From a virus: a stretch of DNA of 24,596 nucleotides. Where the stretch lies: positions 1-24,596 of IMG/VR virus record IMGVR_UViG_3300043420_000050. One strand, given 5' to 3'. Below, in pieces: positions 8,610 to 23,732 of this stretch (within the stretch, counting starts at the first letter, position 1; the number at the start of each line of letters is the position of its first letter). Both the position numbers and the translations under genes were made by a program. Under the pieces are notes generated by a model. The model did not search any database. It saw nothing but the letters and a program-made list of their open reading frames with translations, and was not told the origin of the DNA.

Positions 8610-9293
8610 TCAGGCAGTAACAGTTAGAACTGCTGCGTCAGAAATAACTTCCTCAGCACCAGCATCAGATGTTAGTTTGACACGATACTCATGAGCATCA
8701 AGTCCAGTAACATCAGAAATTACTAGGGTATCAGTATTGAAGTCGCTGTAGACTCCACCATCTAGAGTGCCACTAACGTTAGTCCAACGACCAGCAGCAC
8801 TGGTTCTACGCTGCCAGATGTAAAGAACGGTTCCAGTTGGGGCAGCAGCGGCAGTGACGGAGAATGCTCCTGGATCACCAGCAGCAACTGTGTCATCAGC
8901 AGGTTGTACAGAGATGCTGATAGCGGATGCTACGTCAGCGGCAACAGCATCATCAGTATCAGCAGTGTTGGCAGGAGCATCCTTCATTGATACAAGATGT
9001 ACTGCCTTGTGGCGAGTAGCACCAGAAGCATCAGTATATGAGGTATACTGCCACCAACCAGGAGCGGTTAGTCCACGCTCTCTGTTCTCGGCAAGAGTTG
9101 CTTCAACTTCGTCAATGAAAATTGATCTTGCTTGGATAGCAGCATTACCCTCAGCACCAGCGGTGGCATTAGTATTGCCATCATGTGCTACGAGAGTTCC
9201 ATCAGATTCGTACTTCTTGACGGAAGACTTCTCAGTTGTGTTTAGAACTTTAATTGATTGTGCTTGCGTTTCAGCACGACTGTACAAAGCCAT
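8610..9293 (-). CDS. Probable virion surface protein with a C-terminal Ig-like domain
   Basis: The product has 227 residues and low charge, with Ala, Thr, Asp, Gly and Val abundant. Residues 1-120 are a structural-looking domain with APGWWQYTSYTDASGATRHK. From about residue 130 an Ig-like domain follows: QPADDTVAAGDPGAFSV, then TVLYIWQRR with the core Trp, and near the end DAHEYRVKLTSDAG with the typical D-X-X-X-Y-X-V pattern. Ig-like domains decorate tailed-phage capsids and tails and may bind cell-surface sugars weakly. The gene has a T4-type late promoter box 39 bases upstream and a terminator before that, consistent with a late structural gene. Which virion part it belongs to cannot be read from the sequence. 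Confidence 0.8.
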   Translation of the reverse strand: MALYSRAETQAQSIKVLNTTEKSSVKKYESDGTLVAHDGNTNATAGAEGNAAIQARSIFIDEVEATLAENRERGLTAPGWWQYTSYTDASGATRHKAVHLVSMKDAPANTADTDDAVAADVASAISISVQPADDTVAAGDPGAFSVTAAAAPTGTVLYIWQRRTSAAGRWTNVSGTLDGGVYSDFNTDTLVISDVTGLDAHEYRVKLTSDAGAEEVISDAAVLTVTA

Positions 9294-10818: not shown

Positions 10819-12587
10819 ACACCCATACCCAGAGCATCTTGCATATTATTAGCATAATTTTTAGTTCTCAATTTAATCCACTGCTTATACTGCCCAAAAT
10901 TTCTGGTGCTAACAAAATCATAATACAATCTCATTTCATTATTAATTTCTTTTTGTTTTGTTATAGAGTATAACACACTTTCTTTCAATAGGACTTGTTC
11001 ATAAAATAACTTGTAAAAATTTATTTGAGTTGCTCCAGTTTCATATGAAGTTTGAACAAGAACTCGTTCACATAACAAAGCGACATTATTCAAAGCAAAT
11101 GGATATTTTTTATTCGGACTTCTTTTAACCGCTTCTTCTTCTGTTAAAGAAATACATTCCTTAACTTTTTTGGTTTTACTCTCTTCTTTAAAAAGATTGT
11201 CTGCTATAAAATTTTTTGTTTTCAAAAGCAAACCAGGATCCGATATAAGATTATCCAAAGGTTCAAAATTTTTATTGATGCTGGTAATTTTTTTATCCAA
11301 AATTGTCAATACTTGATTCCATTCATTAACCGACATTGACGAAGTATTCAGCACTTGTTTGAAGTCACTAGTAACTTGTGATTTCTTAGATCCAGCTAAT
11401 AGTTTTCTCAATCCTCTTATAGGATACAGAGTTCCTTTACTACTATATTTGTTATACTCCATAGCAGAAGAAGCTATCATTCTCTGCCCAATCTGAGAAG
11501 ACCTAGCATTTGATGCTATACTTTTAAACCACTTATGTACTTCTGCTTCTCCACCAGGAAATGCTGTCTGGAATTTAACTGTTGCTGTAGAAGATCCTCT
11601 CATCTGTGATTTAACACTAATCTTCAACGGAGTATTTCTATTACCATTAACAGCAATTTTATAATCAATCAATGCTTCGTTAGCTGCTTCTGGCAAATAA
11701 ATTTCAACCTTAGTAATCCTTTCTTCTTCTGGCCACCCAACAACATCTTTTATAATCTTATTGTTAGAAGACAAAAGTTTAGATATTTTTAGAACAGAAA
11801 GAACTTCAAAAAATTCTGACGACATATCTGGTGCCACACCAAGTTTATCATCTAAAGTATTATTATTCCATGAGTTAGAAACCGCCTCAACATAACTCTC
11901 TCTAAGATAGTTACTAGTAAAAATACTGTTAGAATCTGGATGATTAATAAAAGATATAACATTATTATAAAATTGCTGAGGACTTAACCACACATCAGTA
12001 ATTTTTGGACTAACGTCTTTTGGTTTTAATGAAGATAGCTTACCACTACTTTCCGCTTTACCAGCATACTTCAATGAAAAATTGTAATTGATTCCAGTTT
12101 TTTTAGTTACAATGTTACCCTTCTTATCTAAAACTTTATAAGCATAAAATGATTTAATAACTAAAGTTGGGTTTTTGCCACCAGCTAATGTGTGTAACTT
12201 GATCTCTGTTATATTTAATTTATTTTTGATACTTTTAGAATTAACGAAGGAGATCATATCCTGAATGAATGACGCTCTAGGAGTTCTAAAGTTCAAAGCA
12301 GAATATTTTTGATTTCCATTATCACATGTCATCTTGTAATTATATGTGATGGAACTCTTTCCTTTGATAACCGCTTCAATCTCGGTTAGAGTTCCGTCTT
12401 CGTCTACATCCTTACTACCACCCTCTATAATAAAATCAAAACCATTCGTTTCATTGTATTGTTTATTAAAAGCATATCCAGCAGCAACATGAACGAGTCT
12501 CAGCATCCTTCTAATTCTTGTTGCTGGAATATCAATATCAATATAGTTGTCAATGTTTCTTTGTTCTTTTCGTAAGTCAAATGCCAT
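10815..12587 (-). CDS. Large unknown protein, 590 aa, coupled to the ligase/nucleotidyltransferase fusion
   Basis: I do not recognise this protein. It begins MAFDLRKEQRNIDNYIDIDI, with a mixed alpha/beta N-terminal half in which two segments follow a similar beta-rich plan (TEIEAVIKGKSSITYNYKM near residue 80, and DYKIAVNGNRNTPLKISVKS near residue 320). The second contains an acid followed by a strand ending in I-S-V-K-S, which resembles the (D/E)XK region of restriction-type nucleases. This is weak. The C-terminal 200 residues are helical and Lys-rich. Its codon choice looks more AT-rich than gp41 or nrdA, suggesting separate acquisition. The start shares a base with the upstream fusion gene stop (TAATG), so the two proteins are likely partners; the next gene overlaps as ATGA. 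Confidence 0.85.
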   Translation of the reverse strand: MAFDLRKEQRNIDNYIDIDIPATRIRRMLRLVHVAAGYAFNKQYNETNGFDFIIEGGSKDVDEDGTLTEIEAVIKGKSSITYNYKMTCDNGNQKYSALNFRTPRASFIQDMISFVNSKSIKNKLNITEIKLHTLAGGKNPTLVIKSFYAYKVLDKKGNIVTKKTGINYNFSLKYAGKAESSGKLSSLKPKDVSPKITDVWLSPQQFYNNVISFINHPDSNSIFTSNYLRESYVEAVSNSWNNNTLDDKLGVAPDMSSEFFEVLSVLKISKLLSSNNKIIKDVVGWPEEERITKVEIYLPEAANEALIDYKIAVNGNRNTPLKISVKSQMRGSSTATVKFQTAFPGGEAEVHKWFKSIASNARSSQIGQRMIASSAMEYNKYSSKGTLYPIRGLRKLLAGSKKSQVTSDFKQVLNTSSMSVNEWNQVLTILDKKITSINKNFEPLDNLISDPGLLLKTKNFIADNLFKEESKTKKVKECISLTEEEAVKRSPNKKYPFALNNVALLCERVLVQTSYETGATQINFYKLFYEQVLLKESVLYSITKQKEINNEMRLYYDFVSTRNFGQYKQWIKLRTKNYANNMQDALGMGV

Positions 12588-14362
12588 TAGGACATACCTG
12601 CTAGTACTGCTTGGATATACATTTTCTTAAATTCCTTATCGTTCTTAACTGCTTGAGGTAACCCACTTTCAACCGTAGCAAAGTCACCTTCCACAATTGC
12701 TTTACGAACTTTACTGGCAGACATTCCAGATACATCATCAGCATCAGGATCTCTAGTGCCAGCACTCTTGATCTCAACAGTATTCATGTTGTAGTCTTTA
12801 CCATTATACTGTTTGATAAACTGGAATGCTGGTACACGATCAGAACCAACTACAAAGATAGCATCAGTATATCCTTCACTTTCCAACCACTTCAATGCTT
12901 TGATAGCATCACGAATGTCTTCATTTAGGATAAGATTTTTCTGGTGAGAAGGAAACATCGCTTTCATAAGAGTAACTTTCTGAGCAGCGGTCAAAGGGTT
13001 CTTTCCTTTTTTGTCGGTGGTATGACTAGGGAACACGTAGTAATCATTACCAGCAGCATACTCCTTGACTTTATTTATTAGTAGCTCATGACCCGTGGTA
13101 GGAGGATTGAAACGACCGAAGGTGAATACAGCAACCTTGGCACCGTCACCAACAGGAGGACGCCAGGACTTCTCAAGCGTGAAGTTAGCACGAGAGAACT
13201 CAAGACGATCAACGATCTTGACTGCCTTGCCATCAACGATGGCAACGAAACCTTCAGGTTTAGTCACCACAAAGTTGTCACCACTACGAAGGAACACACG
13301 AGTATCGCTGAGACCAGCAAGTTTCAGATTGATCAGGTTCTTGGCATTCGTGAAAGAGTTATACATCACAATGAATGCTTTGAATGCTCGATGGTTGTTC
13401 TCTAGATACGAGATACCGTCAGCAAGAATGTCACGATACTGTGCCTTAGACTTTTCAGTTTTTAGACTCTCAATCTTCTCTATCAGGGACTTCTCAAACG
13501 CTTTCGTGAAACCGCTGATGAAAGCATTTACGTTCGTGATGGTCTTACCTTCTTTCACGTAGGAGTTCGTGAAACGCTTCATCGTATAACCAAGCGTGAA
13601 TTGCTTTCCTGCTTCATGGGAGATCAGTTCAAGAAACTCCTTAGCAGTAGAAGCATTTCGAGAAACAACAGAGATAACAGACTTCAACACACGCTCCTCA
13701 GAAGGTGTGAGACCAGACTTGGCGCTGATGTTATCTACAGTAGCAGTCGCCAGGAATACGTTACGAGTGGATTTGAGGTTGAAGCGATCAACCCCGAAAC
13801 CAGCAGACAAAGTATTTACAGGACCAGTACCGCTGTAATAGGTATGAAATACAGCACCGATCTTAGCAGTATTTACTGCCTTGCCCAGATCGCTATCCAC
13901 AGGCCAAGCATACGTTAGAGTGTTAGGGGTAGCAGTATAGAAACGTTCTCCATCGATAATTTTCGTCTGAACGTCTTCATCCGTAAAGAGAAGGTCTCCT
14001 TGGATAACTCCCTTGATCTTGAGTTCGGGGAAATACTTCAGACAATACTTCAGTTTCTTAGCGAGGTCAGGGATCTCTCCATGGTTTTTATCAATATCTT
14101 CTTCAGTAAAATTGATCTTCGGTTCTTTCTTATTGAATACAGACTTGGTGCCTACAAAGAAGTTACCGCTCTCTGGGTCGATGCCACAAACCACAGCAGG
14201 AGCGCCGTCCCATTTGGTAGTAACCTTTACGTTACCAGTGGGACGACCACCAAGTTCATCTATAAAGTTTTGAATTAGGTCCTTGGAAGCGATGTATCCA
14301 TTATATCCATAATTAATTAACTCATCTTCCAGGTGCTCCAGGTGCTTATTCTGGGTTGCCAT
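12587..14362 (-). CDS. RNA-ligase-like domain fused to a HIGH-family nucleotidyltransferase (NMNAT-like)
   Basis: The protein has 591 residues and two domains. The N-terminal about 400 residues carry covalent nucleotidyltransferase (RNA/DNA ligase) motifs in order: motif I TTKWDGAP with the candidate adenylated lysine K50, motif III-like GVIQGDLLF near residue 117, motif IV-like PEGFVAIV and motif V-like KAVKIVDR. From about residue 410 a second domain begins VAVFTFGRFNPPTTGHELLI, the (H/T)XGH nucleotidyltransferase signature (H425). It ends with GMSASKVRKAI, the ISSTXXR-like motif of NMN adenylyltransferases and relatives. The first domain would seal or adenylate RNA or DNA; the second would transfer AMP or CMP to a small substrate such as NMN. 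The joint substrate is unknown. A late-type promoter box lies 20 bases upstream. Confidence 0.85.
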   Translation of the reverse strand: MATQNKHLEHLEDELINYGYNGYIASKDLIQNFIDELGGRPTGNVKVTTKWDGAPAVVCGIDPESGNFFVGTKSVFNKKEPKINFTEEDIDKNHGEIPDLAKKLKYCLKYFPELKIKGVIQGDLLFTDEDVQTKIIDGERFYTATPNTLTYAWPVDSDLGKAVNTAKIGAVFHTYYSGTGPVNTLSAGFGVDRFNLKSTRNVFLATATVDNISAKSGLTPSEERVLKSVISVVSRNASTAKEFLELISHEAGKQFTLGYTMKRFTNSYVKEGKTITNVNAFISGFTKAFEKSLIEKIESLKTEKSKAQYRDILADGISYLENNHRAFKAFIVMYNSFTNAKNLINLKLAGLSDTRVFLRSGDNFVVTKPEGFVAIVDGKAVKIVDRLEFSRANFTLEKSWRPPVGDGAKVAVFTFGRFNPPTTGHELLINKVKEYAAGNDYYVFPSHTTDKKGKNPLTAAQKVTLMKAMFPSHQKNLILNEDIRDAIKALKWLESEGYTDAIFVVGSDRVPAFQFIKQYNGKDYNMNTVEIKSAGTRDPDADDVSGMSASKVRKAIVEGDFATVESGLPQAVKNDKEFKKMYIQAVLAGMS

Positions 14363-14389: not shown

Positions 14390-14437
14390 TTAGCAGCACC
14401 ACAGAGGACCGTGAGTAGCAGTGGACAGTTTGAAAAG

Positions 14438-14522
14438 CGGAAGGGGTGGGATTCGAACCCACGGATGCTTTCACATCGCTAGTTTTCAAGACTAGAGCCT
14501 TAAACCACTCGACCACCCTTCC
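14438..14522 (-). tRNA. tRNA-Ser (anticodon TGA)
   Basis: The 85-nt cloverleaf can be drawn on the minus strand. The acceptor stem GGAAGGG pairs with CCCTTCC, with discriminator G. The D arm contains GTCGAGTGGTTTAAGGC. The anticodon stem CTAGT/ACTAG holds the loop CTTGAAA with anticodon TGA. A long variable arm (CGATGTGAAAGCATCCG), typical of class II serine tRNAs, and a T arm with GGTTCGAATCC follow. The 3' CCA is not encoded. It starts 2 bases after the stop of the oxygenase gene, so it is probably cut out of the mRNA. It would read UCA and related Ser codons, used often in an AT-leaning phage. Confidence 0.95.
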
Positions 14523-14524
14523 AA

Positions 14525-15199
14525 TTAAAATGAGTTGACTTGCTGTACCTTAGATCTGGGTAAAGGAGGTTTACAAGAACTTCTAAGTTTATATATGAAA
14601 AACACTAAGGTAAGTCTAGGTTCTTCACCAACAATAAAATTAGATTCTTTGTGAAACTCCATTCCAGAATAACAAATCAACCGATTATATACATTCTTAA
14701 CATCAATAGTTTTTTCAAATTGTTCGTGAAATTTTTCTTTAACGTCAAGATAGTAATCAACATCTACAGGCTCATTAGCATATAAAAGATCTCTTGTATC
14801 AGATAGATCACGTATTGTTCTTTCTTTTACTTGCCTGTATATTGAAGTGCCAGCATCAGGATTTGAATTCTTATTCAAGTAGACTAGTCCAGCAAGAGGA
14901 ACTTTCAAATCTTGATGAACCCAACCAGTATTTATTTCGGGTGGTCCTTCATATGGATATATTTTTTGGAAATGTAATGCCATCTCACATTCGACATAGC
15001 AGTTTTCTCCAAAAAATAATCCAAGAATCTTCCTAACAAATTGATCGTAAAACGACGGATTAATATTACGAAGATAGTCAGTTCTAACGCCAGGGTAGTT
15101 ACCAGATATTTTAGAGTATTCCAAAGAGAGTCCGTATTCACGGACTTCATCTGGATTCTCAAAGAAATCATCTACAACTGATGCTGGAATAAACTTCAT
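14525..15199 (-). CDS. Probable 2-oxoglutarate/Fe(II)-dependent oxygenase (DUF6445-like)
   Basis: The product has 224 residues. The middle part contains the facial-triad pattern: TGWVHQD gives H95 and D97, EFHKES gives H183, and EEPRLTLVFF gives R195, placed 12 residues after the second His, where these enzymes bind 2-oxoglutarate. Between them lie PLAGLVYLN and DAGTSIYR, typical of the double-stranded beta-helix. I recall this layout from the DUF6445 group, in which members occur near flavin-dependent tryptophan halogenases in some bacterial clusters; I have not checked this. A halogenase homologue lies two genes upstream. The substrate is unknown. The start overlaps the mazG stop as TAATG, and the tRNA follows at once. 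Confidence 0.75.
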   Translation of the reverse strand: MKFIPASVVDDFFENPDEVREYGLSLEYSKISGNYPGVRTDYLRNINPSFYDQFVRKILGLFFGENCYVECEMALHFQKIYPYEGPPEINTGWVHQDLKVPLAGLVYLNKNSNPDAGTSIYRQVKERTIRDLSDTRDLLYANEPVDVDYYLDVKEKFHEQFEKTIDVKNVYNRLICYSGMEFHKESNFIVGEEPRLTLVFFIYKLRSSCKPPLPRSKVQQVNSF

Positions 15200-15603
15200 T
15201 AGAGATCATCTTCTGCTCGGTTCTCGGAGTAGTAAATATCAAAGCTTCCACCTGGATACCTCTTCTCAAGTTTCTTGACATTACGTTCAAGAACTTCTTC
15301 AAAAGAAACCCCCAATGCTTGAGTTGCTTGAGCTACGTACCAAAGGAGATCGCCCAACTCAATAATAAGATGTTCTCGGTTGTCGTCGTTCCAAGGTTTA
15401 CCTTGGAAGACCATCTTCTTAACGATCTCAAGGAACTCACCACCCTCAGCATTAATGCCAACACCAGCAGTAATAAGTCGCTCAATATTGGCACCTTTTC
15501 CATCAAGTTCAACAAGACGGTCAGCAAGGGCAACAAAATCTTTAGAAGCGTCACTAGTGACAGCATCTACGAATTCCTCATAACGATTGAAATTAATAGT
15601 CAT
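15199..15603 (-). CDS. mazG: MazG nucleotide pyrophosphohydrolase
   Basis: MazG hydrolyses (d)NTPs or related nucleotides to monophosphates. Cyanophage MazG has been linked first to (p)ppGpp control and later to dNTP (dGTP/dCTP) hydrolysis for reuse of host DNA. The 134 residues show the two metal-binding pairs: EFLE (E56, E59) and ELGD (E82, D85), the latter in HLIIELGDLLWYVAQA. The C-terminal helix FEEVLERNVKKLEKRYPGG also fits the family. The length is typical of the short single-domain form. It starts 2 bases after gp41 and shares a base with the next gene, so it belongs to the replication operon. Confidence 0.92.
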   Translation of the reverse strand: MTINFNRYEEFVDAVTSDASKDFVALADRLVELDGKGANIERLITAGVGINAEGGEFLEIVKKMVFQGKPWNDDNREHLIIELGDLLWYVAQATQALGVSFEEVLERNVKKLEKRYPGGSFDIYYSENRAEDDL

Positions 15604-15605
15604 AT

Positions 15606-16997
15606 TTAGATAACGAATTTAGAAAATTTATCTAGGCGAGATTGTTTAGAAGAAACATCTTCAAACGTTTCGAACGTGTCTTCATCTTCAGTATTGAGGA
15701 TGTTGTCTCCGTCCGAATCCTCAACATTATACAGCTTCATCTTTGCTCTGTCAATACCCACTGTAAAACGTCGGAAGTAAGTGGGATCGTTGTATCGATT
15801 CTTAAGTTGTTTAACCATAATCCTACCAGACTGTTCAAGTTCCTCAGTGGAAATGAGAGCAAACATAAAATCTGCTGTGGCAGGAAGACCAAAGGATTCA
15901 GAAGTGTCGGTGAGATCAACGTCACTATTACCAAAACCAGACCTAGTAGTTTGAGTTGCTGATACAACTGGTACGTCATTCTCAACAGCAAGACCCCTGA
16001 GTTCCTCTGCAATTGCTTTAACATACGTATAACTGTTTACGATGTGTCCTTTATATCTGGACGAAGCACAGATATTTAGATAATCGATGAAGATAATATC
16101 TGGTTTGAAATATTTCTTCAGTGACAATTCATTGAGAAGTCCTTTGAAATGACCAGCGTGGGCAGAGGCGGTAGGATACTCTTTGATAATCAAACGACCT
16201 TGAGTTTTCCTACCGATCTCAGCAACTCTAGAAGTAAATATCTGCTCAGGAATAGAACCAATATCTTTGATATTAACGTTGAGAAGGTTGGCATCAATAC
16301 GCTCAGCAATCTTCTCCTCTGCCATCTCCATAGTGATGTAGAGAACGTTCTTACCCTGAGACAAACATGCTGCTGCCATATGACACATAAACAGAGACTT
16401 ACCAACACCAGTGCCAGCAAGAGCAATGTTCAGTGTTTTATTAGGCAGACCACCTTTTGTTACAGTATTGAACTTATCAATATCAAAAGGAATTTTAGAT
16501 TCATCCTGGTGATAATAATCATAACGTTCGCCAGCATTCTCAACATAATCGTGACCTACATGTTCGTCGAACGATACTGCCAGGGCCTCTTGTAGGATTG
16601 CTGGGATAGCGTCCTTCGATACCTGTTGATTGCCTCCGTCCGCAATCTTGATTGATTCGAGTAGAGCGAGATAGATTGCCCTGTCCTTACACCACTTCTC
16701 CGTTGTGTCAAGCAACCAGTTATATTCAACTGCCGTGTCCTCAAACGACTTGAGCGTTTGAACAGCAGATTGATAAGATTCTTCAGTAATATCCTTCCTA
16801 TTTTGAAGGTCGATAATGATAACTTCCGAAGTAGGTACAGTGTCGTAATTGCTGGCAAAGTTCCAGACTTCTTCGTAGATAATTCTTTCATGATAGTCTT
16901 CAAAATATTCAGGTTTTACAAACGGTACTACCTTTCGATAAAAGTCTTCATTGAAGAGAAGATTCCTGAGAATAGTTGATTCAATTTTTTCCGTCAT
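15606..16997 (-). CDS. 41: Replicative DNA helicase, T4 gp41/DnaB-like
   Basis: Gp41 is the hexameric 5'-3' helicase that opens the fork and binds the gp61 primase. The 463 residues contain an N-terminal helical domain (1-150), a linker and the RecA-like motor. Walker A is GTGVGKS at 195-201 (ALAGTGVGKSLFMCH), and Walker B is IIFIDYLN at 301-308. A conserved TQTTRSGF stretch follows, then a basic motif KNRYNDPTYFRRF. The C-terminal tail is acidic (DSDGDNILNTEDEDTFETF). The length matches T4 gp41 (475). The start lies 17 bases inside the end of the halogenase-like gene, so it is coupled to it. Confidence 0.95.
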   Translation of the reverse strand: MTEKIESTILRNLLFNEDFYRKVVPFVKPEYFEDYHERIIYEEVWNFASNYDTVPTSEVIIIDLQNRKDITEESYQSAVQTLKSFEDTAVEYNWLLDTTEKWCKDRAIYLALLESIKIADGGNQQVSKDAIPAILQEALAVSFDEHVGHDYVENAGERYDYYHQDESKIPFDIDKFNTVTKGGLPNKTLNIALAGTGVGKSLFMCHMAAACLSQGKNVLYITMEMAEEKIAERIDANLLNVNIKDIGSIPEQIFTSRVAEIGRKTQGRLIIKEYPTASAHAGHFKGLLNELSLKKYFKPDIIFIDYLNICASSRYKGHIVNSYTYVKAIAEELRGLAVENDVPVVSATQTTRSGFGNSDVDLTDTSESFGLPATADFMFALISTEELEQSGRIMVKQLKNRYNDPTYFRRFTVGIDRAKMKLYNVEDSDGDNILNTEDEDTFETFEDVSSKQSRLDKFSKFVI

Positions 16998-18117
16998 TCA
17001 TTACTCCTTCGTACCAATTTTTAAAGCTCCAGAATGACCACTGCCCATAACTATGTTGAGTAAATAAAGGATGCCTAATTTGATCACAAGAACTAATCTT
17101 TGATTGTTCTAAAAACTTATCAAAAATTTCATCTTCTACATAAAGTTTTTTACAGTAATTCCAAAAAGGTGTATTATATTTTGATCCATTCTGATAATGC
17201 CACAATATAAATCTTTCCAGATTTTTAATGTAAACTCTCATCATGTCTTCAGCTTTCTCAAGCGAAATTTTATTAGCAACGATAGCTTGAAAAGACAGCG
17301 TTGCCCATTGTTGATATGCTCCTATAGAAGTAGATTCCAACGGTTCTAAGAAAAACATTTTATTGCCATTGAATAAAATATTACCTTTATAAAAATTGTT
17401 AGTGACATAATTTTTAAAAGAAAATTTTGATGTAACTTCGACATCAAACATTTCTAGCATGTTTTTCTCTGCTGCATCTGGATTGGTCTTTTTATTATTA
17501 TACAAATAACCAACAGAATATGGGTATGAAGTAGAATCTTCTAGAGTAGGGATAATAAAGCACCACCCATCTGGAGTTGCTACACATCTAGTCCACGGTT
17601 TTGTAAATACTTCTTTTGGTTTTCCAAGAATAACCGAATTAAGTGGATTAACTAAGTCAGTATATCCAGAGTAATCAGATGGTTTACCAGTACAATCAAA
17701 AACATAATCGGAATCTATCTCAGATACCTTTACATTCTCCTGCTCTCTTACTTTAAAATACCCAGAGTTTAAAATTACAGATCTAGTTTCTTTTGGAGAC
17801 AAGTGTAAAGCATGGGTGTCTAAAGGAAAATCGTGGAAAATTGTTTCAGACTTCCCCCAGTTCTCATACAAAATACCTTCTTTGGGAATAGCTTTGATCT
17901 CATTAGTATACCAATTTGTTCCCAAGGTTTGCCACAAAAGTCTAGGTTGAGATGGTATAGTTGCTTGACCAACTAATTCATGTTTCTTATTTGGATCATG
18001 AATCATCTCAACTTCGACGCCATAGGATTTCCCATGATAAGCATAATATAAAGCGGTAATACACCCAGCGTTTCCAGATCCAACGACTGTTATTTTTTTA
18101 TTCGTCGTCAGTGCCAT
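16981..18117 (-). CDS. Short flavin-dependent tryptophan halogenase homologue (PrnA-like)
   Basis: The 378-residue protein has the FAD-binding loop GSGNAG (13-18) and GQATIPSQ (50-57, usually G-E-A-T-X-P). K79 aligns with the catalytic Lys79 of PrnA. E261 lies in FLEPLEST and aligns with the catalytic Glu. Departures are notable: the WXWXIP signature reads GWCFIIP (184-190), and the residue after EST is Ser (ESTS) instead of the Gly that helps bind chloride. It is also about 130-150 residues shorter than classical tryptophan halogenases. It could halogenate an indole, or work as a related monooxygenase. It starts 20 bases inside uvsX and ends 17 bases inside gp41. Its codon use is AT-rich compared with both, pointing to insertion of a foreign gene into the operon. 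Confidence 0.8.
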
Positions 18118-19121: not shown

Positions 19122-21614
19122 TCAGAAGAAACTCAATAAGGAAACTTTTTTCTCGTAATGCCAACCAATACATTCTAGCACATTCTTGAGAGGTTCCAAA
19201 AAACTCTTCTCAAACTGAAGGTTATGGTCAACATACTTTGCCAGATTAAATTCTGGAGGTAGATTTTGAAAGAATGAAATTACATTCTCTTGGATTGGGT
19301 TTGGAGTCTTGAGGTAGAGAAACTTGATCTTCTCTCCTTCTTGGATAAGAGGATACTTGTGAGTAATTTTATGACTTCGAATGTAGTGATTATACAATAA
19401 TGCACCTCGGACATGAATAGGAGTCCTCTCTCGGTAAATCGATCCTTTGGAGCTGTATTTTTGTAGTCCATTAACACCTCTCGGAAAAGCAATATTCAGG
19501 TAATCTTCCTTCTTAGTATCTTCCTTAACTTTATCAATGAAGTCAATAAGAACATCATTATCTTCGTTAATAATAATACTATATGCTTTCTTCAATTTAT
19601 CCCTAAAGAAAGCAGGAGTAGAAGACCTAGCAGTTTCCATACCACAGATCTTCATCTTAGGTTCGGCATAGCGTACACCTTCACTATCCCACACGTTGAG
19701 AATGTATCGCTTCTTGGCAGTCCAGATAGCACGGTCAGCGATGTTCTCACGCTTCATCTTCATCTTCTGCTCATATGCCGAAACATAATCCGCCAGTTCT
19801 TGATAAGAGGATTCGATGAACGGTTCCAATTTGTCTTGACAGATCTTATCAAGTATCCCCACAATTGCTGCTTTATCGCTAGACTTACTACCAAAAAATT
19901 TAGTAACAAGAGGTCCAAGATTAAGATAGATGCTGTCAGTGTCGGATGCGATAACATAATCCACTCCATCAGTTGACAAGAGTTTATTTAGATACCCATT
20001 CATTTTATTCTCAATCCAACGGATAGAGAGTTGACCAGACATAGTGATAGCTTCAGCAATCTCTAGACGATAGTATCTAAAATGCTCATTGCCGATAGCG
20101 CCATAAGCAGAGTTCAGTTGGATTTTACGTGCCATCTGAATGTTGTTACAGCGAGCGATCTCTTTCTTCAATTCTACAGTAGGATTCTTTTCATACTGCT
20201 GCTTGGCGGCAAGCATCCTCTTCTTGTAGATAGTACGTTCCTGATAGATTTTATCCATCAATTCAGGTAAGAATCCTCTTTTGTTGGTATCGTAATATGT
20301 ACCGTTAGCACATAGAGTTTGACCAGTTAGATCAAACAACTCAATCTCTTTATTTAACAAACGTTCTACATTAGCAGATGGATGACGATTGTCTTTCAAC
20401 GTCTCTGGCGAGAGGTTGTACTGCATAATGAGGTGAGGGTATAGGGAGTTGAGGTCAAAAGATACCACCCAGTCATAAATTCCTGGAATAGGTTCTTTGA
20501 CATATGCTCCAGCATACTTGTTATCCTTTCTGCTTTCATGTTTCGGGGGAATTACAATGTTTTGTTTCGACAGATAAACATAGATGATATTATCCCACAT
20601 ACGTACCTGTGAGTACACATCCTCAAAATTAACCTTAGCATCATATGCCATAGTGATGGCAAGTTCAATCAACTTCATCTTGTCATCCAACTGATCAACC
20701 AATCGAACGTCAATGATGTTGTACTCGACAAACTTCTGCCACCCTTTAGTGTAGAACTCCTTGAAAGTATCAAACTCACTATGGTCTAACTTTCTAGCAC
20801 CAAGTTCTACCGAACAGATATGATCAAGACGATATGATTCTTGGTTAGTGTAAGTAAATTTTTTGTATAATTCAAGGTAGTCTAGACAAGCAATGCCACT
20901 AATGTCGTAGGCAATCTGTTTACGTCCTTTAATATAAATCTCACGGTAAAGGATGCTATTCCATGGAGAGATCATCTTCGCTTCCTTTTCACCGATGATA
21001 CGTTCAATACGCTTGATAATGTATGGCATATCAAACAATTGAACGTTCCATCCAGTAATCACATCAGGATAGTTTGATTGCCAGTAGTGTAAGAATGCTT
21101 TGAGAAGTCCCGTCTCGGTTTCAAACTGCATGTAATCGACATCTTTCTCTTTATTATCAAAAGGGCGACTACCAAAAACAGTGATCCTACCCATCTCAGA
21201 ATCTTTAATGCTGATCAAAAGAATCTCTTGATCAGCAGATTCAATATCAGGGAATCCATTTTCAGCACCAGTTTCAATGTCGATCGTAAAGACACGAATC
21301 TTTCCCATATCAAATTTCATTTCATCCCAAGGATATTCACTAAGGATGTATTGATTGGTATATCGTGTTTGACCATATACAGGAAAGTCTGCCAACTCTT
21401 TATGAGTTTCTACAAACTCTTTAGCATCTTTGATTGTACCCTGTTCTACAGGGCGAACATACTTTCCGTCCAGCGTTTTCCACTCAGACTTTTTGGTTGT
21501 AGGCAAGAACAATGTAGGGTTAAATTTAACCCTATCGCTAAACTGCTTACCATGATCATACCCACGAACAAGAATAGTGTTTCCCGACTGTTGAACGCTG
21601 GTGTAAAATTTCAT
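19122..21614 (-). CDS. 43: DNA polymerase, family B, T4 gp43-like
   Basis: Gp43 copies phage DNA and proofreads. The 830 residues show the 3'-5' exonuclease motifs: Exo[10 protein letters not shown] with D112/E114 (the same numbers as T4), Exo[12 protein letters not shown] (N190, D195) and Exo[13 protein letters not shown] (Y298, D302). Polymerase motif A is FDLNSLYP (D387), motif B is [12 protein letters not shown] and motif C is SDTDSIYL (558-561). The C-terminus SLLSFF is a short hydrophobic tail of the kind that docks on the sliding clamp. The start overlaps the 84-aa gene as ATGA, tying the polymerase to the three small proteins before it. It is somewhat shorter than T4 gp43 (898). RegA may repress its translation, as in T4; I did not find a clear site. 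Confidence 0.97.
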
Positions 21615-21865
21615 TCCGTTTCTACTTTCTTTAGGTCATAATAACGTGCCGATGTTTCGGCATCAGGTTCGGCAATCAACGTAATCTCAGAAGATCTTAC
21701 GACTAGTTCACGATCCGTACTGTAAGGAGGGAATTTAACCACCCCATCAAGCGTTACCTCACATGGGTATTTTAACACACAATCGGGGTCCCCGAACTCA
21801 ACATCGGGGACTTCTTCAATTTCAGCCACAATCCAGTGACCGCTAAACTTCAGTAGTTTAATCAT
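21611..21865 (-). CDS. Small Sm/SH3-like protein, third of a tandem set, 84 aa
   Basis: The product is beta-rich with very little helix. It has lost most of the middle part of its two upstream relatives but keeps the shared core: VKFPPYSTDRELVVRSSEITLIAEP, then a Tyr-rich tail SARYYDLKK (motif around residues 48-80). The upstream proteins show VKFTKWCPYATDTQYRIPY and VKVHFSQWSIFSKSTQFRI at the matching place, each followed by an I-T-I-(A/G)-E-P strand. This looks like a small barrel (Sm/LSm or SH3-like), by pattern only. The start and stop both lie in 4-base ATGA overlaps with neighbours, so the protein is made in step with polymerase. Function is unknown. Confidence 0.75.
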   Translation of the reverse strand: MIKLLKFSGHWIVAEIEEVPDVEFGDPDCVLKYPCEVTLDGVVKFPPYSTDRELVVRSSEITLIAEPDAETSARYYDLKKVETE

Positions 21866-22323
21866 ACTACTTCTGGTGTTACAGCGGGTGGTTGACCAGC
21901 TTCAGCAATTGCTTGCTTAACCAGTTGTTGCTGCTGTTGCCAGTTGGGACTATCTTCAGCACCAGAGGCTGGCATTGGTTCTACTTCTGTAGGAGTAGGA
22001 ATTGTAGTCTCTACTTTCTTACGATAGGCTTGTCCAAGACCTGGATCAGGTTCGCCAATCGTAAGGATGCCATCATAAGGAATACGATATTGAGTATCCG
22101 TAGCATATGGGCACCACTTAGTAAACTTAACCTGAAGATCAAGTTCAGGACTATCTTGACTAGGTGCCGAAATCAAATCAAGTTCATATGGATAGTTCAT
22201 CATCAGACAAATACCACGCCTTTCTTCACCTTCACCTTCAAACACTTCTTGAAGGAATGTAATTAGTTTTTCCCCAGTCCTCAGGACTACAATAGAGGGA
22301 TTCAGTTCAATTGCTTCGCTCAT
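21862..22323 (-). CDS. Sm/SH3-like protein, second of a tandem set, 153 aa
   Basis: Residues 8-105 make up the beta-rich core: IVVLRTGEKLITFLQEVF, then GICLMMNYPYELDL, VKFTKWCPYATDTQYRI and GILTIGEPD. Its opening LRTGEKLI matches the LKTGEHVI of the upstream gene. The C-terminal 45 residues are a disordered Gln/Pro/Glu-rich tail with NWQQQQQLVKQAI. Sm-like proteins such as Hfq bind RNA through short barrels and often have such tails, but I infer this from pattern only. The three-gene set sits immediately before the polymerase and is joined by ATGA overlaps, suggesting a regulatory or accessory role in replication or RNA handling. Confidence 0.8.
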   Translation of the reverse strand: MSEAIELNPSIVVLRTGEKLITFLQEVFEGEGEERRGICLMMNYPYELDLISAPSQDSPELDLQVKFTKWCPYATDTQYRIPYDGILTIGEPDPGLGQAYRKKVETTIPTPTEVEPMPASGAEDSPNWQQQQQLVKQAIAEAGQPPAVTPEVV

Positions 22324-22676
22324 TTAGATTTCTCCTCTTGTTTAATTTTTTCTTGGAACTCTTCAAATTCTGATGGAGACAGAATTGGATATGCTGGTTG
22401 AATCAATTCAATATATCTGTTGTAGATATAATCTTTCGGTTCAGCGATAGTAATAATTTCATCAAATCCAATTCTAAATTGGGTTGATTTAGAAAAAATA
22501 CTCCACTGAGAAAAATGAACCTTTACCTCGCTGTCATTCTCTCCTGCTCCCACCATCTTCAAAAGAGTGGGAACTTCCATAAGAAAACAAAAAGGATTAC
22601 CCTGTTCATCTTTTAGTTCTGTTAGTTTACAGATGACATGCTCACCTGTTTTCAAATGTAAAATACTTACTGACAT
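22320..22676 (-). CDS. Sm/SH3-like protein, first of a tandem set, 118 aa
   Basis: I place the start at ATG 22674-22676, giving MSVSILHLKTGEHVICKL. The longer frame back to 22742 would run through a terminator hairpin and a promoter -10, so its extra 22 residues are not real. The core is VKVHFSQWSIFSKSTQFRI followed by IITIAEPKDYIYNRYIE, closely related to the next gene downstream. The tail is Glu/Lys-rich (EFEEFQEKIKQEEKSK). A small barrel of the Sm or SH3 type is the best guess, with RNA or protein binding as the likely activity. Its -10 box lies 23 bases before the ATG. No clear ribosome site is seen, so the leader may be very short. Confidence 0.8.
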   Translation of the reverse strand: MSVSILHLKTGEHVICKLTELKDEQGNPFCFLMEVPTLLKMVGAGENDSEVKVHFSQWSIFSKSTQFRIGFDEIITIAEPKDYIYNRYIELIQPAYPILSPSEFEEFQEKIKQEEKSK

Positions 22677-22706: not shown

Positions 22707-22737
22707 AAAAAAATACGTGACCCACAAGGGGTCACGT
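22707..22737 (-). terminator. Rho-independent terminator after hsp20
   Basis: The stem ACGTGACCC/GGGTCACGT (22715-22737) has a 5-base loop and is followed on the minus strand by A and seven T. It lies 19 bases after the hsp20 stop. The hairpin also overlaps the likely -35 of the next promoter. Confidence 0.9.
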
Positions 22738-22755: not shown

Positions 22756-23193
22756 TCATTCTGTCAGTAGTTGCTGTTTACCTGCCCCAATAGTGTATGT
22801 GGTTCTCTTCTGATGCTCTGGGATGATTTTCTCCAGTGAGATTGTTAGTAAACCATCGACAAATTCTACAGAGGATACTCTAACATCGTCGGACATTTGC
22901 CAAGAATTATTGAACGATCGTTTGGAGAGACCTTTGTGTAGGTATGTTCTTTCAGTATCTCGTTTCTCAACTTTTGAGGCAACTCGGAGAATGTTCTGTT
23001 CAGTAGAGACCTCGATCTCTTCTGCTTTAAATCCTGCCAGAGCGACTTCGATTTCGTAATTAGATCCATCGTGTTTGATTAAATTGTAGGGTGGATAACT
23101 GGTGTTATGTCCAGACATTGCCTCTAGACGATTAAATACTTCGTCTAGACCTACTGAAAATGGGGAATAGATATCCCAGGTATATTTAGTCAT
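22756..23193 (-). CDS. hsp20: Small heat-shock protein Hsp20 (IbpA-like)
   Basis: Hsp20 proteins hold unfolded proteins in a refoldable state in the cytoplasm. The 145 residues have an N-terminal arm resembling IbpA (SPFSVGLDEVFNRLEAM) and an alpha-crystallin domain from about residue 35 (YPPYNLIKHDGSNYEIEVALAGF) to GLLTISLEKIIPE, which holds the G-X-L signature. A short tail follows (KRTTYTIGAGKQQ). It is a regular member of cyanomyovirus genomes and is usually linked to virion assembly or stress protection. AAGGAG lies 7 bases before the ATG. It is transcribed alone, with an extended -10 promoter upstream and a terminator on each side. Confidence 0.95.
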   Translation of the reverse strand: MTKYTWDIYSPFSVGLDEVFNRLEAMSGHNTSYPPYNLIKHDGSNYEIEVALAGFKAEEIEVSTEQNILRVASKVEKRDTERTYLHKGLSKRSFNNSWQMSDDVRVSSVEFVDGLLTISLEKIIPEHQKRTTYTIGAGKQQLLTE

Positions 23194-23303: not shown

Positions 23304-23732
23304 TTACACTTCAGGTTTCTTACGACCAATATTATATTTACTTTCTAAAGTCCACTCATCTTTTTCTTTAAAGGCAAGGACTTTAATCTGATTGAGTGGA
23401 GCAACATCAGAAATTTTTTCTTGACTAGTAGAAGAAATTTTAATTAATCCCCAATCACTGAGAAGTTGAATGATACGATTACGACGTTGTACGTCATTCA
23501 ACGACAAGTTAGTATTCTTACCGTCAAGAGCAAACAACTCTTTGAAGTGAACGATGTAATACTTACCTTGCTTGTGTAGGATATGGCAAGACTGATAGAT
23601 CTTCTTTTCTTTACGAGATGCTACACCAATTCTGGTGAGCGTTTCACGTACCTTAAGGAAATCGTCTGGTTGACCCAGAACCACTTCTACCATATCTGTA
23701 GGTTGCCACTGTACTTCAATATCAGCTGTCAT
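23304..23732 (-). CDS. regA: RegA translational repressor
   Basis: RegA binds the start regions of early mRNAs and blocks their translation in T4-like phages. The protein is nearly colinear with T4 RegA: PDDFLKVRETLTRIGVASRK, then YQSCHILHKQGKYYIVHFKEL, WGLIKI and FKEKDEWTLESKYNIG. It has 142 residues against 122 in T4, with an N-terminal addition. The ATG at 23732 overlaps the gp62 stop as ATGA and is preferred. An in-frame ATG at 23693 (MVEVVLGQPDD) would match the T4 N-terminus more closely and is a real alternative. It is the last gene before a terminator. Confidence 0.95.
   Translation of the reverse strand: MTADIEVQWQPTDMVEVVLGQPDDFLKVRETLTRIGVASRKEKKIYQSCHILHKQGKYYIVHFKELFALDGKNTNLSLNDVQRRNRIIQLLSDWGLIKISSTSQEKISDVAPLNQIKVLAFKEKDEWTLESKYNIGRKKPEV

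What the first reader, a model, noticed from the sequence alone, without database searches (positions are those of the whole stretch)
21611..22676. Three tandem related small-barrel proteins coupled to DNA polymerase
The three products share a core VK(F/V)-X-(P/Q)(Y/W)...ST(D/Q)...(I/V)-(I/L)-T-(I/L)-I-(A/G)-EP and are linked by 4-base ATGA overlaps to each other and to gp43. They look like successive duplications with one member shortened and one with a Gln/Pro tail. An Sm/Hfq-like RNA-binding or hetero-oligomeric ring role before the polymerase would be new.
Basis: partly seen in the sequence, partly recalled or inferred. Interest (0 to 1): 0.65.

Follow-up and report, generated by a model that had tools for sequence, protein, structure and literature searches.

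The report
Acidic Sm-like trio beside phage polymerase
A marine cyanobacterial virus carries three related small-barrel genes stitched onto its DNA polymerase gene; the fold is already known from one solved marine phage protein, but the tandem set, its strong acidity and its link to the polymerase have no explained function.

Summary
ORFs C (22320-22676), B (21862-22323) and A (21611-21865), minus strand, are homologous and joined to each other and to gp43 by 4-base ATGA overlaps. The Sm-like reading of the fold is right: predicted models of C and A match the solved pentameric Sm-like protein 3by7 (Z 14.8 and 11.7), ahead of eukaryotic and archaeal Sm/LSm. It is not unique to this window. The window is a T4-like cyanomyovirus fragment; among 142 distinct gp43 loci anchored by an upstream regA or hsp20, 87 carry two such genes in this slot, 14 three, 27 one, 14 none. 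A belongs to an old, separate short class; B is the common long class; C is an extra copy of uncertain origin. The nearest relatives of 3by7 are single genes in the same slot of Pelagibacter-phage-like genomes. RNA binding is not supported: the Sm2 Arg-Gly is absent and the tandem paralogues are strongly acidic (median pI about 4.5), whereas neighbouring RegA and gp62 are basic. I favour an acidic, protein-binding ring scaffold made in step with gp43; an RNA- or ssDNA-binding ring remains possible. Oligomeric state, partners and function are untested.

The parts
22320..22676 (-). ORF C, 118 aa, first Sm-like gene of the array; the extra copy
   Evidence: DUF6561 40.5 bits (cut-off 27) and Sm_like 19.9 bits (cut-off 29.4); AlphaFold model pLDDT 88.7; 3by7 Z 14.8, rmsd 0.9 over 81 residues
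21862..22323 (-). ORF B, 153 aa, long-class Sm-like gene with a Gln/Pro-rich tail after about residue 107
   Evidence: PHROG 431 E 1.9e-28; BLASTP to C E 1e-17; long-class group of 16 rows, SH-aLRT 99; DUF6561 only 21.5 bits, under the cut-off
21611..21865 (-). ORF A, 84 aa, short-class Sm-like gene directly before gp43
   Evidence: DUF6561 70.6 bits; AlphaFold model pLDDT 92.5; 3by7 Z 11.7, rmsd 1.5 over 74; short class SH-aLRT 100
19122..21614 (-). gp43 DNA polymerase, start codon overlapping the stop of A (ATGA)
   Evidence: PHROG 262, 1200 bits; sequence
22756..23193 (-). Hsp20, upstream neighbour that delimits the array
   Evidence: PF00011 58.2 bits; PHROG 432
22715..22737 (-). terminator-like hairpin plus T run between hsp20 and C; the array and gp43 may start a transcript after it
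   Evidence: 9-pair stem and T-rich tail; consensus scan only, 13 terminator-like sites in the region against 5.8 (sd 2.7) in shuffles; a TATAAT follows in the sequence but no promoter there passed the scan
23304..23732 (-). RegA translational repressor (context)
   Evidence: PF01818 150.7 bits
23729..24115 (-). gp62 clamp-loader subunit (context)
   Evidence: PHROG 225 152 bits

Best explanation
The three genes encode diverged paralogues of a phage Sm-like family (Pfam DUF6561 / Sm_like). SHOWN by computation: common ancestry, the Sm small-barrel fold of A and C (predicted models), the conserved position between hsp20 and gp43, and the overlap with gp43. INFERRED from the solved relative: they assemble into rings, probably pentamers, through edge-strand pairing. 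INFERRED: the rings act as acidic protein-binding scaffolds (hub or assembly factor) of the replication module rather than as Hfq-type RNA chaperones. Translational coupling would make ring subunits in step with the polymerase, and the acidic surface would hold basic partners made nearby (gp62, RegA) or gp43 itself. The old split into a short class (A, with a conserved G-[ED]-P-D-C loop between strands 2 and 3) and a long class (B, C, with a long strand 3-4 loop and variable tails) suggests two distinct subunit roles, in one mixed ring or in separate rings.
For: Fold. Sequence link to 3by7 without the 3by7-like group in the query: short class E 1.4e-8, long class 6e-12. Pentameric LSm: five chains of 3by7 and passages that call the LSm part of TIP60 pentameric (PMC10374429; PMC7212437). 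Conserved slot. Coupling: last Sm stop to gp43 ORF start is -4 in 60 and -1 in 22 of 100 loci, duplicates included; adjacent Sm ORFs, taken from their first possible start, overlap in 133 of 138 pairs. Acidity: short class median pI 4.45 (n=100), long class 4.49 (n=103), against RegA 8.93 (n=71), gp62 9.20 (n=64), Hsp20 5.84 (n=86), gp43 6.82 (n=106). Sm2 Arg-Gly absent. Host precedent: cyanobacterial Hfq, an Sm protein, has very low affinity for RNA and works in a protein complex with PilB and EbsA (passages of PMC10989914).
Against: Net acidity does not exclude a local nucleic-acid site; acidic Sm-type proteins that bind RNA exist (recalled). Nothing shows that A, B or C forms a ring, touches gp43, gp62 or RegA, or mixes with the others. 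The tree-distance test for L-S coevolution was not specific: partial r 0.31 for L-S against 0.30 for L-Hsp20 and 0.29 for S-Hsp20. Coupling to gp43 is not universal: 11 of 100 loci have more than 30 bases between. 14 of 142 anchored loci have no recognised member, so the genes are not required by every T4-like phage.
Confidence: 0.42

Rival explanations
1. RNA- or ssDNA-binding Sm-like rings: a phage RNA chaperone or single-strand chaperone made with the polymerase, serving hosts whose own Hfq is missing or does not bind RNA.
For: Sm/LSm fold; position in a module with the repressor RegA and replication proteins; 10 of 12 sequenced Prochlorococcus strains lacked Hfq (passages of PMC2518516) and cyanobacterial Hfq hardly binds RNA (passages of PMC10989914); single-copy relatives are charge-neutral with conserved basic columns, R 93% at column 35 and K 79% at column 60.
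Against: The tandem paralogues have mainly other residues at those columns, carry a median of about -8 charges per 100 residues, and lack the Sm2 Arg-Gly.
Confidence: 0.28
2. Cis-acting control: the Sm-like genes are mainly a translational lead-in for gp43, with a ring that binds its own mRNA or RegA and so sets polymerase synthesis, replacing the gp43 self-repression known in T4 (recalled).
For: Common short overlaps with gp43; RegA upstream of hsp20; terminator-like hairpin ahead of C.
Against: 11 of 100 loci have a gap over 30 bases and single-copy loci often have 300 bases or more, in Mosig with another gene between; coupling alone would not need a conserved fold or two old classes.
Confidence: 0.15
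3. Host-directed proteins: acidic Sm rings that occupy a basic host factor or imitate host Hfq.
For: Acidity; Sm fold; host Hfq works through protein contacts.
Against: Strict placement with replication genes and kin in phages of unrelated hosts.
Confidence: 0.1

Closest known systems
PDB 3by7, Sm/LSm-like pentamer from a marine metagenome (LSm part of TIP60)
   Same: Same fold (C: Z 14.8, rmsd 0.9 over 81; A: Z 11.7, rmsd 1.5 over 74) and same sequence superfamily. Its nearest kin sit in the same slot before gp43.
   Different: It belongs with the single-copy, about charge-neutral class; A, B and C are tandem, acidic, about 20% identical to it, and in other classes. Its best named relative is Pelagibacter phage Mosig (45%), not a cyanophage.
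T4-GC 176 / 177 / 417 hypothetical proteins of cyanomyoviruses (S-PM2, S-RSM4, ACG-2014h, P-HM1, Sf-FR1); Pfam DUF6561; PHROGs 431 and 483
   Same: Same genes, same slot between hsp20 and gp43; Sf-FR1 and IMG/VR locus L030 share the C-B-A order.
   Different: Most have two genes, not three; in S-RSM4 and its kin the third gene lies in the middle and forms another clade.
Sm/LSm and SmAP proteins
   Same: Fold, Z about 5-7.
   Different: No Sm2 Arg-Gly; no LSM/Hfq Pfam hit; acidic; RNA binding untested.
Hfq
   Same: Sm fold class (recalled); host Hfq in cyanobacteria also lacks RNA-binding residues.
   Different: No Pfam Hfq hit; no detectable sequence kinship.

Membership tests
Pfam PF20198 (DUF6561) | score over the curated cut-off of 27 bits | tested here: met
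   A 70.6 and C 40.5 bits, over the cut-off; B 21.5 bits, under it, and joined to the family only through C and the class profiles; 67 of 74 long-class members match at E <= 0.01
Pfam PF16243 (Sm_like) | score over the curated cut-off of 29.4 bits | tested here: not met
   C 19.9 bits; A and B not listed; search of the window's own record gave no match
Sm/LSm superfamily | five-stranded Sm small barrel | tested here: met
   predicted models of C and A, matches to 3by7 and then to Sm/LSm chains; B not modelled, inferred from homology to C
Sm/LSm superfamily | Sm2 Arg-Gly between strands 4 and 5 | tested here: not met
   columns 89-90: short class R 29% then S 97%; long class P 52% then mixed; window A R-S, B P-Y, C G-F; the motif itself is recalled, and the mapping rests on strand order
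Sm/LSm superfamily | ring oligomer by edge-strand pairing | not testable with these tools
   only the relative 3by7 is known as a pentamer
Sm/LSm superfamily | RNA binding | not testable with these tools
   acidity argues against it, no assay
Hfq / LSM Pfam models | sequence match to the curated models | tested here: not met
   hmmscan of A, B, C at E <= 1 listed only PF20198 and PF16243; the program's filters drop most very weak matches
Cyanomyovirus hsp20-gp43 Sm-like array | one or more homologous ORFs between hsp20/regA and gp43 | tested here: met

The most novel reading that the evidence does not exclude
T4-like cyanophages make a hetero-oligomeric Sm ring from an old short and an old long subunit (here with a third), which works as a polymerase-linked acidic protein hub instead of an RNA binder: an origin, outside eukaryotes, of mixed Sm rings by paralogue divergence, starting from a single charge-neutral gene as in Pelagibacter phages.
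Probability: 0.22. Interest if true: 0.78.

Novelty: new variant of a known kind. Interest (0 to 1): 0.5.

Why it matters
These genes sit in the replication operon of most of the cyanomyovirus loci examined and are mostly labelled hypothetical. Linking DUF6561 to a solved Sm-like pentamer gives them a fold, a testable ring model and residues to change. A natural tandem series of short, long and extra subunits would be a compact system for asking how Sm rings go from one subunit to several, and whether an Sm ring can serve a DNA polymerase. It also places the solved 3by7 nearest to Pelagibacter-phage-like genomes, in the gp43 slot.

Tried and rejected
Single-sequence PDB search gave nothing for A and only weak 3by7 hits for B and C (E 0.079 and 0.15); profiles were needed. 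The record that holds the window is just the 24.6-kb window, so nothing more of this genome could be read. Rfam found only a tRNA, no RNA element in the array. Tree-distance coevolution of L and S was no stronger than with Hsp20 (60 loci), so it is no evidence for a mixed ring; residue-level coupling was not tried because about 100 pairs are too few. Placement of C in the tree has no starred support. A genome scan for cellular relatives of A gave 96 pattern matches and no relative; it reaches close relatives only. Simple chance similarity is rejected. The charge comparison of single- and multi-copy loci is partly confounded by differing phage proteomes: gp43 differs by -1.2 and gp62 by -3.4 charges per 100, against -8.4 for the Sm-like genes; its p-values treat related sequences as independent.

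Literature: ten searches in an open-licence library found no paper holding DUF6561 or ECX21941, and no listing that describes the tandem array; subscription papers are mostly missing. The 3by7 paper (recalled as Das and others 2009, Proteins) was not held under the DOI that I gave from memory, so its content is recalled. Of PMC3037559 I read passages, abstract text among them, and one section; of PMC2518516, PMC10989914, PMC10374429 and PMC7212437 only passages; all other papers only as search listings.

Full report
WHAT IS THERE. The window is a fragment of a T4-like cyanomyovirus: Hsp20, RegA, gp62, gp43 and other T4-type genes lie on the minus strand, and the nearest named records are Synechococcus phages and cyanophages (132 records, none covering 80% of the 5.5-kb query). 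Between hsp20 and gp43 lie C, B and A. Each pair of neighbours, and A with gp43, overlaps by ATGA.

HOMOLOGY. Pairwise BLASTP gives E 1e-17 (B-C), 4e-5 (A-B), 2e-4 (A-C). Class profiles give E 1.4e-15 (short against long), 5e-8 (short against the upstream 3by7-like group) and 3.4e-14 (long against that group). An HMM begun from the three window proteins alone recruited 57 ORFs and stopped growing. In the final set it hit 423 of 12,107 ORFs, with none on the minus strand, none downstream of gp43 and none among reversed decoys.

FOLD. AlphaFold gave confident models for C (pLDDT 88.7) and A (92.5), both with the strand order of an Sm barrel followed by a helix. VIA-align puts 3by7 first for C (Z 14.8, rmsd 0.9 over 81) and for A (Z 11.7, rmsd 1.5 over 74), with Sm/LSm chains next, after TIP60, at Z about 7 and 6. 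By Foldseek E-value 3by7 is first for C, while for A the first rows are TIP60, a designed fusion that contains a pentameric LSm unit, and 3by7. B was not modelled; its fold follows from its homology to C. Profile searches without the 3by7-like group still find 3by7. So DUF6561, a 'family of unknown function', is an Sm-like family.

DISTRIBUTION. Twenty-four phage records read around the slot all have at least one such ORF before gp43: 18 have two, 5 three, 1 one (the records were chosen from the hits, so this is not a random sample). Four IMG/VR scans anchored on gp43 (each keeps the best 80 of the first 600 matches) plus the records and the window gave 253 loci with gp43, 200 distinct by a gp43 core stretch. 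Of the 142 with regA or hsp20 upstream, 87 have two Sm-like ORFs, 14 three (window included), 27 one, 14 none; 58 distinct loci were left out because neither anchor was in view. A further paralogue lies before gp62 in 12 of 44 distinct loci with more than 2 kb upstream of gp62. Structure search in predicted viral proteins also found the fold in phages of Agrobacterium, Burkholderia, Ralstonia, Stenotrophomonas and Sinorhizobium.

HISTORY. In a tree of 129 of 217 domains (86 columns, many weak forks), 52 of the 53 rows labelled short form one side of a starred branch (SH-aLRT 100); the 53rd is the single gene of Pelagibacter phage Mosig, labelled short only by position, which falls with the upstream group. 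Window A lies in the short class, window B in a starred 16-row long-class group, and C has no starred place, its nearest rows being first genes of other three-gene arrays. Third genes occur at two positions: first (window, L028, L030, Sf-FR1) and middle (S-RSM4, ACG-2014h, ACG-2014j and three IMG/VR loci; starred clade of six); the P-HM1 and L075 arrays are unplaced. So the extra copy probably arose more than once, while the short-long split appears older than the cyanomyoviruses compared; the tree is unrooted. The closest relatives of 3by7 are single genes before gp43 in Mosig-like genomes, the best at 73% over 89 residues (L194); among named records Mosig is best at 45%. This makes the gp43 slot the likely home of the solved protein too.

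CHEMISTRY. The tandem proteins are strongly acidic: median -8.1 (short, n=132) and -8.5 (long, n=138) charges per 100 residues, pI about 4.5; the 29 single-copy proteins of at least 96 residues have median 0.0, pI 6.2. Neighbouring proteins of the same loci shift far less between the two sets of loci. The short class has nearly constant G-[ED]-P-D-C between strands 2 and 3 and Ser 97% where Sm2 has Gly; the long class keeps [ST]-G-E in the first turn and Trp 88% at column 77; the single-copy class has Arg 93% and Lys 79% at two columns where the tandem classes have mainly other residues. No class has a conserved Arg-Gly.

MECHANISM. Shown: kinship, predicted fold, place, overlaps, acidity. Inferred: rings, by kinship to a pentamer; protein binding rather than RNA binding, by acidity, the missing basic columns and the absent Sm2 motif; supply in step with gp43, by the overlaps. 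A precedent is the host's own Hfq, an Sm protein that hardly binds RNA and regulates pili through protein contacts (PMC10989914, passages). The RNA reading keeps a real share because fold alone cannot decide, and because most Prochlorococcus strains lack Hfq (PMC2518516, passages). Against a specific L-S partnership: the tree-distance signal is no stronger than with Hsp20.

STATUS. The fold and some members were known: 3by7 (2008 release), T4-GC 176/177/417 in annotated genomes, 'Sm-like domain-containing protein' in recent records. T4-like cyanophages share 25 extra core genes, 16 of them hypothetical (PMC3037559, passages and one section); whether T4-GC 176 is one of these could not be read. 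What I did not find in print, in the ten searches listed under Tried and rejected, is the tandem multi-class array, its acidity, its coupling to gp43, or the link of DUF6561 to 3by7. I therefore file it as a new variant of a known kind, with moderate interest.

Noticed in passing
window 12587-14362 (-): A 591-aa protein joins DUF6267 (373 bits) to a C-terminal cytidylyltransferase-like domain (PF01467, 31.2 bits); function unknown.
   Followed up: partly
window 16981-18117 (-): Tryptophan-halogenase-like protein (PF04820, 115.8 bits) in the replication cluster.
   Followed up: no
window 15754-15726 (-): A perfect sigma-70 consensus (TTGACA, 17 bases, TATAAT; 12 of 12) inside the helicase-like ORF 15606-16997, upstream of the ORF at 15199-15603.
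   Followed up: no
window 14437-14522 (-): tRNA-Ser with anticodon TGA.
   Followed up: no
window 8610-9293 (-): Protein with a weak Ig-like I-set match (19.8 bits, under the cut-off of 23.7).
   Followed up: no
L009 4944-5195, L022 4281-4622, L008 5193-5450: In several records the short-class gene is annotated from a late start (126-141 bases), hiding most of its Sm-like domain; the HMM covers a longer ORF.
   Followed up: partly
PHROG 471 and A0A0E3FQP9 (Synechococcus phage ACG-2014f): 'Methylamine utilization' labels stand on a family that matches C (E 1.4e-9) and on a protein with a similar predicted fold; probably a mislabel of Sm-like proteins.
   Followed up: no
L194 1067-1387 and L026 7992-8306: The nearest relatives of solved 3by7 are in Pelagibacter-phage-like genomes (73% and 45%), in the slot before gp43, which suggests a pelagiphage rather than cyanophage source.
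   Followed up: yes
BFVD hits A0A2L0V0T8, A0A482MMQ0, B2ZXM8, A0A0H4ITP8, S5MAP5: A similar fold turns up in uncharacterised proteins of phages of other hosts (Agrobacterium, Burkholderia, Ralstonia, Stenotrophomonas, Sinorhizobium).
   Followed up: no
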